This document shows, piece by piece, positions 28,113 to 35,778 of a DNA stretch of 39,193 nucleotides. The translations under genes and the position numbers were made by a program. The notes under the pieces are model-generated. The model did no database searches and had not been told where the DNA came from. It was given only the letters and a program-made list of their open reading frames with translations. The DNA is from Candidatus Tepidiaquacellales bacterium OLB5 (GTDB lineage Bacteria; Bacteroidota; Ignavibacteria; Tepidaquicellales; OLB5): positions 1 through 39,193 of the forward strand of contig LLZO01000126.1 in NCBI GenBank assembly GCA_001567545.1, read 5' to 3'. Each line of letters opens with the position of its first letter. Within the stretch, counting starts at the first letter, position 1.

Positions 28113-29239
28113 ATGCATGATATTAACAGAAAATTACATATTTTAATTTCATGCTGCTCAGAATCCTGGGGCGGGCTGGAAATGGCAGCATTGGAAACAG
28201 CCATTCAGCTTAAAAAATCGGGCATGCAGGTTACAATTGCAGGGTTGGATAACACAGCTTTTATCAAAAAGGCCGGAAATTATGAATTTAATCTGATCTC
28301 ATTGTTGCCCGGTAATATACATTTGTTAAAGAACATTTTCACAATAAAAAAATTTATTAAAACCTCAGATCCAAATATTATTCATTCCCATTTATCCCAT
28401 GATCTCTGGATACTAACCCCGGCTTTAAAATTATCCGGTTCTGATGCAAAATTGTTTTTAACAAAACATATGGCAAGCGGTATTAAAAAGAAAGATATAT
28501 TTCACAGGTTTTTGTATAATCGGGTCAATAAAGCAGCAGCAGTATCACAATACATTAAAAAAAGCCTGGTGGATACAACCTCCATACCGGAGGATAAAAT
28601 TATAGTATTACCGGTTGGGATCGATGCTGATAAATTCAATATATTTTATAACAAAGAAGAGATCAAAACCGTTCTGCAAATACCGCTAAATAAGCTGGTA
28701 ATTGGCTTTACTGGCAGGATAACACCAGGTAAAGGGCACGAAGATTTTTTTAAAGCTGCAAAAATTTTTGAATAAAAAAATTTCCGGGTGAACTAATTTT
28801 TCTGGTGGTAGGAAGTGCTGGAAAAGAGGAAGAAGAATATGAAAAAATGATAAGGCAAATTCCTGAAGATGAAGATTTAAAAAATGTTATATTTACCGGG
28901 TTTACGGATGAACCTCAAAAATATATGTCTGTATTTGATATATTAGCATTCCCCTCCCATGATGAATCATTCGGCAGGGTGCTTGTAGAGGCAATGGCTA
29001 TGGGAATACCAACAGCTTCAAGCGGATTTGCAGGTGTTCTGGATATTACAGTTGAAAATGAAACCGGGCTGCTGTTTGAACCGAAGAATCCTGTAAGCAT
29101 GGCTGAAGCTTTAAGCAAATTAATATCTGATAGTGACCTAAGGCATAAATTTTCTGTAAACGGGAAAAAACGGTTTCAGGAATATTTTACACTGGATAAA
29201 GTAACAAAATCTTTGTTAAATCTATATTATAACACATAA
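28113..29239 (+). CDS. GT4 family glycosyltransferase, broken by a frameshift
   Basis: The N-terminal half has a GT4-type start (SCCSESWGGLEMAALE), HSHLSHD and the GFTGRITPGKGHEDF hinge motif. The frame stops at 28775. The C-terminal half continues in another frame from about 28775 with LVVGSAGKEEEEYEK and the nucleotide-sugar site PSHDESFGRVLVEAMAMGIP, which carries the E-x7-E pair. Adding one base within 28771-28775, for example an A making GAAATA, restores a single 375-residue enzyme, a normal GT4 length. Either the assembly lacks a base or the gene is decaying. Its last base is shared with the ATG of the NUDIX gene (TAATG). The substrate is unknown, and envelope polysaccharide is a reasonable guess. 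Confidence 0.8.
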
Positions 29240-33233: not shown

Positions 33234-34145
33234 TTAAACTTTTTCTATTTCTTTCTTGCCCAGTATTCCGGTTGGCTTAAACAAAAGTATTAAAATCAAT
33301 ATACCGAATGCAATAGCATCACGGTACGTTGGAGAGATATAGCCTGTTACAAATGTTTCAAGCAGTCCTATTATCATACCGCCTATTGCTGCGCCGGGAA
33401 TATTACCTATTCCTCCCAGAACAGCAGCAACAAATGCTTTTAAACCGGGAAGGATACCCATAAGCGGATCAATACTCGGGTAATTTAATCCGTACAGAAT
33501 CCCTGCTGCTCCCGCAAGCGAAGAACCGATAATGAAAGTAAAGCTTATCACTGCATTAATGTTAATTCCCATAAGGCTTGCTGCAGTCGGATTGTATGAT
33601 ACTGCCCGCATTGCAGTGCCTATCTTTGTTTTCATAACAATAAGCCTAAGTACTGTCATTAATATTCCCGCAGTAATAAGCACTACCAGCGGATTAGAGC
33701 CTATTACAGCGCCAGCCAGATTTACGACCGGCTTATTTTCAAGCAGAGTGGGAAAAGATTTCGGGTCCGCCCCGAAAACAAGCTGTCCGCCGTATTCCAG
33801 GAATAACGATACCCCGATTGCTGTAATTAATATTGTAAGCTTGGGTGATTTACGAAGCGGTTTGTAGACAAGCTTTTCAATTGTAAATCCAAGCAGGCTG
33901 CAAATCAGCATTGCCCCGAGCAGAATAGCAATAGCCATTGCCAGTGATGTAAATCCCCCGCCGGTTGAAAAAGCAAATACAATTCCCAGGTAATAACCTG
34001 AAAATGCGCCTATCATAAACACATCGCCGTGCGCAAAGTTGATAAAACGGAGAATACCGTAAATCATAGTATAGCCAAGCGCAATCAAAGCATAAATGCT
34101 TCCAAGTGAAAGTCCGTTAAATACCTGCTGAATAAATTCCGTCAT
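33234..34145 (-). CDS. livH: Branched-chain amino acid ABC transporter permease LivH
   Basis: The 303-residue permease has eight or so hydrophobic helices and the typical opening IQQVFNGLSLGSIYALIALGYTMIYGILRFINFAHGD. Near the end is LGGIGNIPGAAIGGMIIGL, the EAA-like loop of LivH/LivM permeases. Length is normal. LivH pairs with LivM, the ATPases LivG/LivF and the binding protein LivK to import branched-chain amino acids or related substrates. Only livK is nearby, and it lies upstream beyond the four-helix-bundle element. livM, livG and livF do not follow, since the next gene is the thioesterase. The start ATG abuts an array of 8-bp repeats with no recognisable Shine-Dalgarno. Confidence 0.9.
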   Translation of the reverse strand: MTEFIQQVFNGLSLGSIYALIALGYTMIYGILRFINFAHGDVFMIGAFSGYYLGIVFAFSTGGGFTSLAMAIAILLGAMLICSLLGFTIEKLVYKPLRKSPKLTILITAIGVSLFLEYGGQLVFGADPKSFPTLLENKPVVNLAGAVIGSNPLVVLITAGILMTVLRLIVMKTKIGTAMRAVSYNPTAASLMGININAVISFTFIIGSSLAGAAGILYGLNYPSIDPLMGILPGLKAFVAAVLGGIGNIPGAAIGGMIIGLLETFVTGYISPTYRDAIAFGILILILLFKPTGILGKKEIEKV

Positions 34146-34148
34146 AAC

Positions 34149-34187
34149 AAATAGTGAAATAGAGAAATAGTGAAATAGTGAAATATC
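34149..34187 (+). repeat. Left inverted array of 8-bp unit AAATAGTG
   Basis: Starting four bases before the livH start (reading away from it), the plus strand reads AAATAGTG, AAATAGAG, AAATAGTG, AAATAGTG, then a decayed unit. It is inverted relative to the array at 34609-34640, and the two bracket the four-helix-bundle gene. Confidence 0.85.
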
Positions 34188-34545
34188 ATTTTCTTTTGGA
34201 TTTTGCTGTTTTCCTGGATACAGACATCACTTTTATTAATTCATTTGTTTCATTATACAACGGCAATAATTTTTTTTCAGAAACAATTTCCGATTCCATA
34301 AGCAATTCCAGCCAAAATGCTGATTCATCAGCTTCTTCGACAACGATTGAAAGTTTAGCATAAAATTCAGCGGTCGATCTGCCTCTTGTTGCAGCTCTGA
34401 AATTTGCACCAACGGAGCACCCTGATCTTAGCAGTTGTTTACCAATAACTCTTGCTTCTTCAGTTTTTGGAAGTGACTGAAACAGTTTGATAATTCTTAA
34501 AGCAAAATTTTTAGTTCTTATTCTGAATTCATCATTAAATCCCAT
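34186..34545 (-). CDS. Four-helix-bundle protein (23S rRNA intervening-sequence protein family)
   Basis: The 119-residue protein matches the S23/TIGR02436 four-helix-bundle family: IRTKNFALRIIKLFQSLPKTEE, then the hallmark LLRSGCSVGANFRAATRGRS, then FYAKLSIVVEEADESAFWLELL, with a basic C-terminal tail. The family was first found inside 23S rRNA intervening sequences and is also related to Avd of diversity-generating retroelements. Its own function is unclear, and nucleic-acid binding is likely. A good AAAGGGA lies upstream of the ATG. It is inserted between livK and livH on the same strand, bounded by inverted arrays of an 8-bp unit, and its stop codon overlaps the left array. No reverse transcriptase is near. 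Confidence 0.9.
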   Translation of the reverse strand: MGFNDEFRIRTKNFALRIIKLFQSLPKTEEARVIGKQLLRSGCSVGANFRAATRGRSTAEFYAKLSIVVEEADESAFWLELLMESEIVSEKKLLPLYNETNELIKVMSVSRKTAKSKRK

Positions 34546-34608
34546 TTAAATATCCCTTTCTGTTATTTTAAGATTTAAGAAAAAGTCAGGATAAACGAAA
34601 TTCTAAAT

Positions 34609-34640
34609 CGCTATTTCACCATTTCACAAATTCACTATTT
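34609..34640 (-). repeat. Right inverted array of 8-bp unit AAATAGTG
   Basis: On the minus strand, directly overlapping the livK stop codon, the units read AAATAGTG, AATTTGTG, AAATGGTG, AAATAGCG. It is the inverted partner of the array at 34149-34187 and more diverged from the unit. Confidence 0.8.
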
Positions 34641-35778
34641 ATGGTTGAACTGTTTCTTTATATTTAAATTGCCCGCCTTTGATTTCAAGTATAACTGCAG
34701 GTTTAACAGCATTGCGCTGTTCGTTAATAGAGATCTTTCCGGTTACTCCCATAAAATCCTTTGTTTTGGCAAGTTCATTCTTAACTTTTTCGGGTTCGGT
34801 TGAGCCTGCTCTTTTCATAGCATCAAATAAAATCAAGCCTGCATCATAAGCAAGAAAGCTCATAGCATCAGGCATTGCATTATATTTTTCTTTATACTTT
34901 TTAATAAAGTTCTGGATTGCCGGGTCTGGATTTTCAGTGGATACATGCGTTGAAAAATAGCATCCTTCAAGTGCATCTTTGGCTTTGCCTTCGGTAAGCT
35001 TTTCTGATTCCCATCCGTCACCGCCGAAAAGCGGAACTGTTATGCCTATTTCGCGGGCCTGGATAGCAATTAAGCCAACATCTGTATAATATCCGGGAAT
35101 AAAAATTGCCTCCGGATTTTTTGATTTAATTGCTGTTAGCTGCGCTTTAAAATCCTTGTCACCTGCGCTATATGACTGAACTTCAATAATTTCTCCTCCG
35201 GCAGCTTTGAATTCTTTTTCAAAGAAATCTGCAAGCCCTGTACTGTATGCATTTTTTACATCTTTTAATACAGCTACTCTTTTTACCTTTAACGAATTTA
35301 TCGCAAACTTTGTAAGCACTGTTGCCTGGAACGGGTCAATAAAACAAACCCTGAAAATGTAATCGCCAATTGCGGTTACTTCGGGATTTGTTGATGCAGG
35401 GGTAACCATAGGAATCTTATTCTGCTGGCAGATAGGAGCTCCGGCTTTACTATTGGAAGATGCAACCTCACCAATAACAGCAACCACATTATCATTCTTG
35501 ATAAGTCTTTGTACTACTGTCTGTGATTCAGACGGTTTACCCTGGTTATCATAAGTAATCAGCTTTATCTGCTTTCCGTTAATTCCGCCGTTATTGTTCA
35601 TCTCTTCTACTGCAAGTTTTAATCCATTGGTCGAAGAGATTCCAAATGTTGCATTGGGTCCTGTTAATGATGCAAATTCACCAATCAGGATTTCGTTGCC
35701 ACCGCCCTTATTGCAGCCAGTGAAAGATAAAAAAATTACTGCTGTTAAGGCAAGCATACTGAAAAAGTATTTTTTCAT
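34639..35778 (-). CDS. livK: Branched-chain amino acid ABC transporter binding lipoprotein LivK
   Basis: The 379-residue protein has a lipoprotein signal (FLSFTGC, lipidated C22). A periplasmic type I binding fold of the LivK group follows: ILIGEFASLTGPNATFGIS, GLKLAVEEMNNNGGINGKQI, then NVVAVIGEVASSNSKAGAPI and VTPASTNPEVT. It should deliver branched-chain amino acids or a similar ligand to the LivH/LivM permease. The ligand cannot be fixed from sequence. It is the first gene of the livK-element-livH block. The 135-bp gap upstream (35779-35913) is AT-rich and must hold the promoter. I see nothing else in it. Confidence 0.9.
   Translation of the reverse strand: MKKYFFSMLALTAVIFLSFTGCNKGGGNEILIGEFASLTGPNATFGISSTNGLKLAVEEMNNNGGINGKQIKLITYDNQGKPSESQTVVQRLIKNDNVVAVIGEVASSNSKAGAPICQQNKIPMVTPASTNPEVTAIGDYIFRVCFIDPFQATVLTKFAINSLKVKRVAVLKDVKNAYSTGLADFFEKEFKAAGGEIIEVQSYSAGDKDFKAQLTAIKSKNPEAIFIPGYYTDVGLIAIQAREIGITVPLFGGDGWESEKLTEGKAKDALEGCYFSTHVSTENPDPAIQNFIKKYKEKYNAMPDAMSFLAYDAGLILFDAMKRAGSTEPEKVKNELAKTKDFMGVTGKISINEQRNAVKPAVILEIKGGQFKYKETVQP

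What the first reader, a model, noticed from the sequence alone, without database searches (positions are those of the whole stretch)
34149..34640. IVS-like element with a four-helix-bundle gene inserted exactly between livK and livH
The sequence shows the gene of the 23S-rRNA-intervening-sequence protein family bracketed by inverted arrays of the 8-bp unit AAATAGTG. One array overlaps the livK stop and the other ends four bases from the livH ATG. Proteins of this family are known from 23S rRNA intervening sequences, which are flanked by inverted repeats and excised from the rRNA. I infer that this could be an mRNA counterpart: a structured element in an operon transcript whose arms pair, loop out the gene, and may be cut by RNase III. 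That would uncouple livK from livH.
Basis: partly seen in the sequence, partly recalled or inferred. Interest (0 to 1): 0.75.

Follow-up and report, generated by a model that had tools for sequence, protein, structure and literature searches.

The report
Repeat-bracketed small-gene cassettes in operons
The gene between livK and livH is one copy of a widespread, apparently undescribed kind of ~0.5 kb cassette: a small-protein gene bracketed by inverted arrays of a 7-10 base repeat that differs from site to site, placed exactly between the stop and start codons of neighbouring operon genes, and present or cleanly absent in close relatives.

Summary
The window holds an S23-family (PF05635/TIGR02436) gene bracketed by inverted AAATAGTG-type arrays, starting in the livK stop codon and ending three bases before the livH ATG. 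The same genome has 10 such genes and 13 genomes of its genus have 58; nearly every one tested has inverted short-period arrays, with a different unit at each site. An unbiased scan showed that a second, unrelated family (GxxExxY, PD-(D/E)XK fold) has the same architecture. The livK-livH site is filled in six genomes, cleanly empty in four (stop and start 0-2 nt apart or overlapping) and differently occupied in two. A distant relative (LivH 72% identical) carries the same cassette with the same unit. The protein is under purifying selection. Cassettes lie in sense with the operon (65:0). The proposed RNA mechanism (arms pair in mRNA, RNase III cuts) is not supported by the one test that separates RNA from DNA: arm mismatches show no excess of G.U over A.C (162:181; tRNA stems 17:1). 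Solo arrays of the same vocabulary lie just after stop codons genome-wide. Best reading: a selfish-type, operon-resident cassette with DNA-level array ends. How it moves is unknown.

The parts
34186..34545 (-). cargo gene, 119 aa four-helix-bundle protein of the S23 / 23S-rRNA-IVS family
   Evidence: PF05635 and TIGR02436; AlphaFold model pLDDT 94, closest fold 2rld, then 2gsc and Avd 4dwl; dN/dS about 0.08 among six genomes
34601..34640 (-). 5' arm (livK side): degenerate array of the 8-bp unit AAATAGTG in gene orientation, beginning inside the livK stop codon
34149..34188 (+). 3' arm (livH side): the same unit, inverted; four units plus a degenerate fifth, ending 3 nt before the livH ATG and overlapping the stop codon of the cargo gene
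34546..34600 (-). leader between 5' arm and the cargo ATG; a similar leader is seen in most orthologous cassettes, missing in G007 where the array runs up to the ATG
34639..35778 (-). livK-like substrate-binding protein (upstream neighbour); stop codon at 34639-34641
   Evidence: PF13458
33234..34145 (-). livH-like permease (downstream neighbour); start codon at 34143-34145
   Evidence: PF02653; NF008011 best match but below its cut-off

Best explanation
The window holds one copy of a class of compact (~0.5 kb), selfish-type gene cassettes that live inside operons. Each cassette is a small gene (S23-type four-helix bundle, or GxxExxY PD-(D/E)XK protein) in sense orientation between two inverted arrays of a 7-10 bp unit, and it fills the space from the stop codon of one gene to the start codon of the next. 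SHOWN: the architecture, its generality, the site-specific unit, the two cargo families, the presence/absence at the same site with a clean empty state, purifying selection on the livK-livH cargo, and the sense-only orientation. INFERRED: the cargo is expressed from the host operon transcript; the stop-to-start position is where insertion costs the host nothing; the arrays work as DNA-level ends that are kept alike on both sides by recombination or copying; and the cargo (fold of the nucleic-acid-binding Avd, or nuclease fold) acts on these ends or on an intermediate to keep or spread the cassette. UNKNOWN: the enzyme that inserts or removes it. At livK-livH the cassette is old and mostly inherited, with clean losses or re-gains.
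For: 58 TIGR02436 genes in 13 genomes of the genus, 54 tested: cognate inverted arms median 41 vs 20.5; 77 named relatives in Bacteroidota, Acidobacteriota and others 42.5 vs 21. In 1.2 Mb of a finished genome an unbiased inverted-repeat scan recovered all five S23 cassettes plus three look-alikes, all three being GxxExxY genes; 30 GxxExxY loci 33.5 vs 20. livK-livH: six filled, four clean empty (ccgTAATGactg, ccgTAAAATG twice, ccaTAAGATG); livG-livF and one GxxExxY site also have clean empty counterparts. Filled and empty genomes are interleaved on the host tree, so either at least three precise losses or several precise gains. Same cassette and unit in L276, LivH 72% identical. S23 proteins up to 66% identical at different sites carry unrelated units. 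Sense:antisense 65:0, 16 S23 sites and 21 GxxExxY loci. dN/dS ~0.08. No RNA wobble signature (control).
Against: No transposase, integrase or reverse transcriptase is in the cassette; no clear target-site duplication was found. Vertical inheritance explains most of the livK-livH copies, so recent movement is not shown. For the four clean empty sites loss is as likely as never having been filled, and replacement by homologous recombination is not excluded. Solo arrays (about 79 non-coding in 2.4 Mb) outnumber cassettes, so the arrays may have a life of their own. Binding of arrays by the cargo is not tested; unit and protein clade do not correlate inside the genus (rho 0.07).
Confidence: 0.5

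Rival explanations
1. mRNA counterpart of a 23S rRNA intervening sequence: the arms pair in the operon transcript and loop out the gene, and RNase III cuts the stem; in a variant, the stem only brings the livK stop and livH start together so that translation stays coupled.
For: Cargo family is that of rRNA IVSs; predicted fold pairs the arms with the stop and start codons at the stem base (MFE -114.7, z -2.47, 0/100 shuffles); sense-only orientation.
Against: Arm mismatches are G.U 162 vs A.C 181 (fraction 0.47, CI 0.42-0.53), whereas tRNA stems of the same genus give 17:1: no trace of selection for RNA pairing. At livK-livH cognate arms pair no better than swapped arms from other species. Solo arrays without partner are common.
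Confidence: 0.15
2. The arrays are independent dispersed repeats (like heptamer repeats known elsewhere) that settle behind stop codons; the S23 or GxxExxY gene was captured between two of them, or the array is an operator that its protein binds to control its own expression.
For: AAATAGTG pairs occur dispersed in all 13 genomes, also where livK-livH is empty (few hits for the reversed control pattern). In one genome 43 of 96 solo arrays abut a stop codon, in the same strand sense as 5' arms; 36 of 79 have an end within 6 nt of a gene boundary vs 9% at random.
Against: Capture does not explain why nearly every S23 and most GxxExxY genes tested have arms on both sides, inverted, with the same unit on both sides. 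Solo arrays can equally be remnants: half-deleted cassettes are seen at carA-carB in G007 and G004 and at the L005 site in G004.
Confidence: 0.25
3. An ordinary, long-resident operon gene with low-complexity spacers on both sides that drift and expand by slippage; the inverted symmetry is incidental.
For: The gene is conserved at this site across distant genomes and is under purifying selection.
Against: Incidental symmetry cannot give cognate arm scores well above those of non-cognate pairs in three independent sets nor clean empty sites.
Confidence: 0.05

Closest known systems
23S rRNA intervening sequences encoding S23p (for example Coxiella burnetii, PMC4990558; IVSs in CPR rRNA, PMC11270868)
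   Same: Same protein family (PF05635); about 430-500 bp; gene bracketed by inverted repeats; regarded as selfish; patchy distribution.
   Different: Not in an rRNA gene; arms are short-period arrays with a site-specific unit rather than one inverted repeat; up to 10 or more copies per genome in mRNA operons; a second unrelated cargo family; no RNA-pairing signature; cargo clearly conserved at livK-livH, whereas the Coxiella ORF is reported to decay.
bAvd / Avd of diversity-generating retroelements (4dwl, 8ub7)
   Same: Same fold (Foldseek probability 1.0, TM 0.71-0.77, E 0.23); Pfam PF05635 members resemble Avd (PMC10053308).
   Different: No reverse transcriptase or template/variable repeats beside the cassette; neighbours are operon genes.
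Heptamer direct-repeat arrays such as TAACTGA of Beggiatoaceae (PMC4679880)
   Same: 7-bp tandem arrays, intergenic, overlapping stop codons in a fixed orientation; also found in some Bacteroidetes.
   Different: One unit studied per genome, mostly upstream of start codons, no bracketed gene and almost never inverted; here many units, behind stop codons, and inverted pairs around S23 or GxxExxY genes.
MITEs / IS elements with terminal inverted repeats
   Same: Inverted ends, small size, filled and empty sites.
   Different: No transposase, no constant terminal sequence (the ends differ at every site), no clear target duplication; ends are tandem arrays.

Membership tests
S23 / 23S rRNA IVS protein family (PF05635, TIGR02436) | profile match above curated cut-off | tested here: met
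   63.4 bits (cut-off 33.8) and 83.5 bits (cut-off 24)
S23 / 23S rRNA IVS protein family (PF05635, TIGR02436) | four-helix bundle fold | tested here: met
   model pLDDT 94, four helices; Foldseek 2rld E 3e-6
23S rRNA intervening sequence (IVS) | lies inside an rRNA gene | tested here: not met
   between livK and livH; no Rfam match in the window
23S rRNA intervening sequence (IVS) | inverted-repeat arms around an S23 ORF | tested here: met
   (as arrays rather than a single repeat)
23S rRNA intervening sequence (IVS) | arms pair as RNA and are cut by RNase III without ligation | not testable with these tools
   cutting cannot be tested; the indirect sign of RNA pairing (G.U over A.C) is absent
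Diversity-generating retroelement | adjacent reverse transcriptase with template and variable repeats | tested here: not met
   immediate neighbours are livK and livH; no reverse transcriptase recognised among the ORFs listed around the cassette
IS element / MITE | constant terminal inverted repeats | tested here: not met
   ends differ from site to site
IS element / MITE | target-site duplication | tested here: inconclusive
   filled and empty junctions compared at livK-livH, livG-livF and a GxxExxY site; no clear duplication, ends overlap stop and start codons
Heptamer direct-repeat arrays (TAACTGA type) | many copies of one heptamer in direct orientation, no bracketed gene | tested here: not met
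   many units, 7-10 bp, inverted pairs around genes

The most novel reading that the evidence does not exclude
A new class of mobile genetic element in which unrelated small proteins (S23 four-helix bundle; GxxExxY PD-(D/E)XK) are carried between inverted short-tandem arrays that are not a fixed terminal repeat but take a new sequence at each insertion site, are then maintained there as a matched pair over long times, and are aimed at stop/start junctions; the genome-wide solo arrays behind stop codons are its non-autonomous copies or scars.
Probability: 0.35. Interest if true: 0.9.

Novelty: new variant of a known kind. Interest (0 to 1): 0.75.

Why it matters
S23/IVS-family and GxxExxY genes are common small genes of unknown function in Bacteroidota (114 of 148 sampled genomes have S23 genes, up to 16 per genome). 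Showing that both sit in the same kind of inverted-array cassette at operon junctions gives these orphan families a common context, connects rRNA intervening sequences and Avd to a much larger population of elements, and offers a handle on the scattered 7-8 bp arrays of these genomes. The filled and empty sites make insertion, excision and function directly testable, including in cultured Mucilaginibacter and Pedobacter.

Tried and rejected
Unit recognised by protein clade: inside the genus no correlation; the correlation among named relatives (rho 0.41) may be shared genome composition, left open. Unit copied from the target: carA-carB and a few other sites look suggestive, but the site-level test is not significant (mean rank 0.44-0.46, 0.5 expected). 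Compensatory pairing of cognate arms: no preference over swapped same-site arms at livK-livH. Horizontal transfer of the G008 cassette: S23 tree conflicts with the host tree (support 91 vs 100), but segment identities do not back it. A first tRNA control was parsed in the wrong register and was redone. Rfam: nothing. Literature: no paper in the held library describes these cassettes; the library lacks most subscription papers and most preprints, so this is weak evidence of novelty.

Full report
1. What is there. Window 34149-34640 holds, between livK and livH on the minus strand, a 119-aa ORF of the S23 / 23S rRNA IVS family with inverted arrays of an 8-bp unit on both sides. The livK-side array begins in the livK stop codon; the livH-side array ends 3 nt before the livH ATG. 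The number of exact 8-mers in the window is not unusual; the arrangement is.

2. It is one of many. The genome (G000, 3.27 Mb, an Ignavibacteria-type bacterium by its named relatives) has ten TIGR02436 genes. Reading their flanks shows that each is bracketed by its own short-period array, inverted on the other side, with a different unit: about aaattcgtc, aattacg/aattcct, ggcaaaag, gtgaaat, ggttagaa, gagtgta, ttcgga, aaatagtg. Thirteen genomes of the genus have 58 such genes. For 54 loci the 5' flank aligns to the reverse complement of its own 3' flank with a median score of 41; against other loci's flanks the median is 20.5, and in direct orientation 20.3. In 77 relatives of the window protein from named genomes (Mucilaginibacter, Pedobacter, Hymenobacter, Acidobacteriaceae, Anaerolineaceae, CPR and others) the figures are 42.5 and 21. 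In a phylum sample 114 of 148 genomes have the gene.

3. A second cargo. A scan of 1.2 Mb of a finished genome (G004) for inverted repeats 150-900 bp apart, blind to genes, recovered all five S23 cassettes and three look-alikes with 400-460 bp between the arms. All three contain GxxExxY genes (TIGR04256, PF13366, PD-(D/E)XK nuclease superfamily). The genus has about 60 GxxExxY matches; 30 loci give cognate arms 33.5 against 20, with their own unit vocabulary (accacagagaac, cgctaagtacgcc, cactaagacactaag).

4. Position and orientation. Where both neighbours of a cassette point the same way, the cassette is in sense with them in 44 S23 and 21 GxxExxY loci and antisense in none, representing 16 S23 sites and 21 GxxExxY loci. 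Arms typically start within a few bases of the upstream stop and end within a few bases of the downstream start (some long arm-to-start values there are start-calling artefacts).

5. Filled and empty sites. livK-livH was read in twelve genomes. Six have the cassette. Four have stop and start overlapping or 1-2 nt apart: TAATG, TAAAATG, TAAAATG, TAAGATG. One has a 60-nt AT-rich spacer and one a set of REP-like palindromes. livG-livF (the L008 site) is clean in G004, as is one GxxExxY site. carA-carB holds S23 cassettes in two genomes, a truncated one in a third, GxxExxY cassettes with another unit in two more, and near-empty junctions in two. On a livH+carB tree filled and empty genomes are interleaved. 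A distant bacterium (L276; LivH 72%, LivK 78% identical) has the cassette at the same site with the same unit, so the livK-livH cassette is old and clean empty states within the genus are at least partly losses. Precise loss and precise gain both require an exact event; exchange with an empty allele by recombination remains possible. The cargo is under purifying selection (dN/dS about 0.08, dS near saturation; livH 0.03).

6. What the unit depends on. At one site the unit is kept across species; at different sites proteins up to 66% identical carry unrelated units (genus-level rho 0.07). A significant correlation among named relatives may reflect shared genome composition. A test that the unit is copied from the target gene end was not significant by site.

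7. RNA or DNA? The minus strand folds with the arms paired and the livK stop and livH start at the stem base (MFE -114.7, z -2.47). If such pairing were selected in mRNA, mismatches between arms should be G.U rather than A.C on the transcribed strand. Over 132 loci there are 162 G.U and 181 A.C (fraction 0.47, CI 0.42-0.53); stems of 24 tRNAs from the same genus give 17 and 1. Cognate arms at livK-livH pair no better than arms swapped between species. The complementarity is therefore strand-symmetric, as expected of something acting on DNA. This speaks against, without excluding, the RNase III model.

8. Solo arrays. In 2.4 Mb of G004 there are about 105 short-period arrays; nine lie by S23/GxxExxY genes and 79 are solo and non-coding. 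36 of these 79 have an end within 6 nt of a gene boundary against 9% for random placement; 43 of 96 solo arrays abut a stop codon, in the same strand sense as cassette 5' arms. Pairs of AAATAGTG are dispersed in all 13 genomes, with few hits for the reversed control pattern, including genomes whose livK-livH is empty. Solo arrays may be scars or non-autonomous relatives.

9. Comparison. The protein belongs to the S23/IVS family and has the fold of 2rld, 2gsc and the Avd protein of diversity-generating retroelements. The cassette resembles rRNA IVSs in size, cargo and inverted arms, but it is not one: it is not in rRNA, its ends are site-specific arrays, and a second cargo uses the same architecture. 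The nearest published repeats are TAACTGA heptamer arrays, which share the stop-codon overlap and orientation but bracket no gene (PMC4679880). No paper in the held library describes the cassettes; that search is limited.

10. Verdict. Real, general and, as far as could be checked, undescribed. Anatomy, generality, empty sites, orientation and selection are shown; expression from the operon, action of the cargo on the arrays, and mobility are inferred; the mechanism of insertion or loss is unknown. I rate it a new variant of a known kind (small S23-encoding selfish elements with inverted arms) rather than categorically new, because movement itself is not shown.

Noticed in passing
L104:1437-1839, L083, L105, L086 (S23 gene near 1467-1836 in gene orientation): S23 genes nested inside larger ORFs (DNA-methylase-like by their conserved motifs, not profile-tested): the host ORF stays open through the whole S23 gene in another reading frame. 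Of 145 S23 genes only these four have an open alternative sense frame, so the host frame looks selected to read through the insert.
   Followed up: partly
L110:18730-19184, L131:11868-12389, L146:9732-10233, L182-L211: GxxExxY (PF13366) genes sit in the same inverted-array cassettes, with units such as accacagagaacacagag; treated in the report as the second cargo.
   Followed up: yes
G004 stretches L107-L166 and L212-L271: About 79 solo 7-9 bp arrays outside genes, nearly half ending at a gene boundary, typically right behind a stop codon and in one strand sense.
   Followed up: partly
L062 (G003), livK-livH junction: Instead of the S23 cassette the junction holds REP-like palindromes (GTAGCACAGACATTCTTGTCTGTG and relatives), so several kinds of element use this spot.
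   Followed up: no
L007, L020, L022, L041, L049: Cassettes whose cargo gene carries in-frame stops, that is, decaying copies beside intact ones.
   Followed up: no
L001 about 1404 (minus strand), start of carB in G000: The reading frame near the carB start is broken by a one-base difference from relatives; sequencing error or real lesion.
   Followed up: no
window 28113-29239: A glycosyltransferase-like gene appears as two adjacent ORFs (220 and 144 aa), as if split by a frameshift or an assembly error.
   Followed up: no
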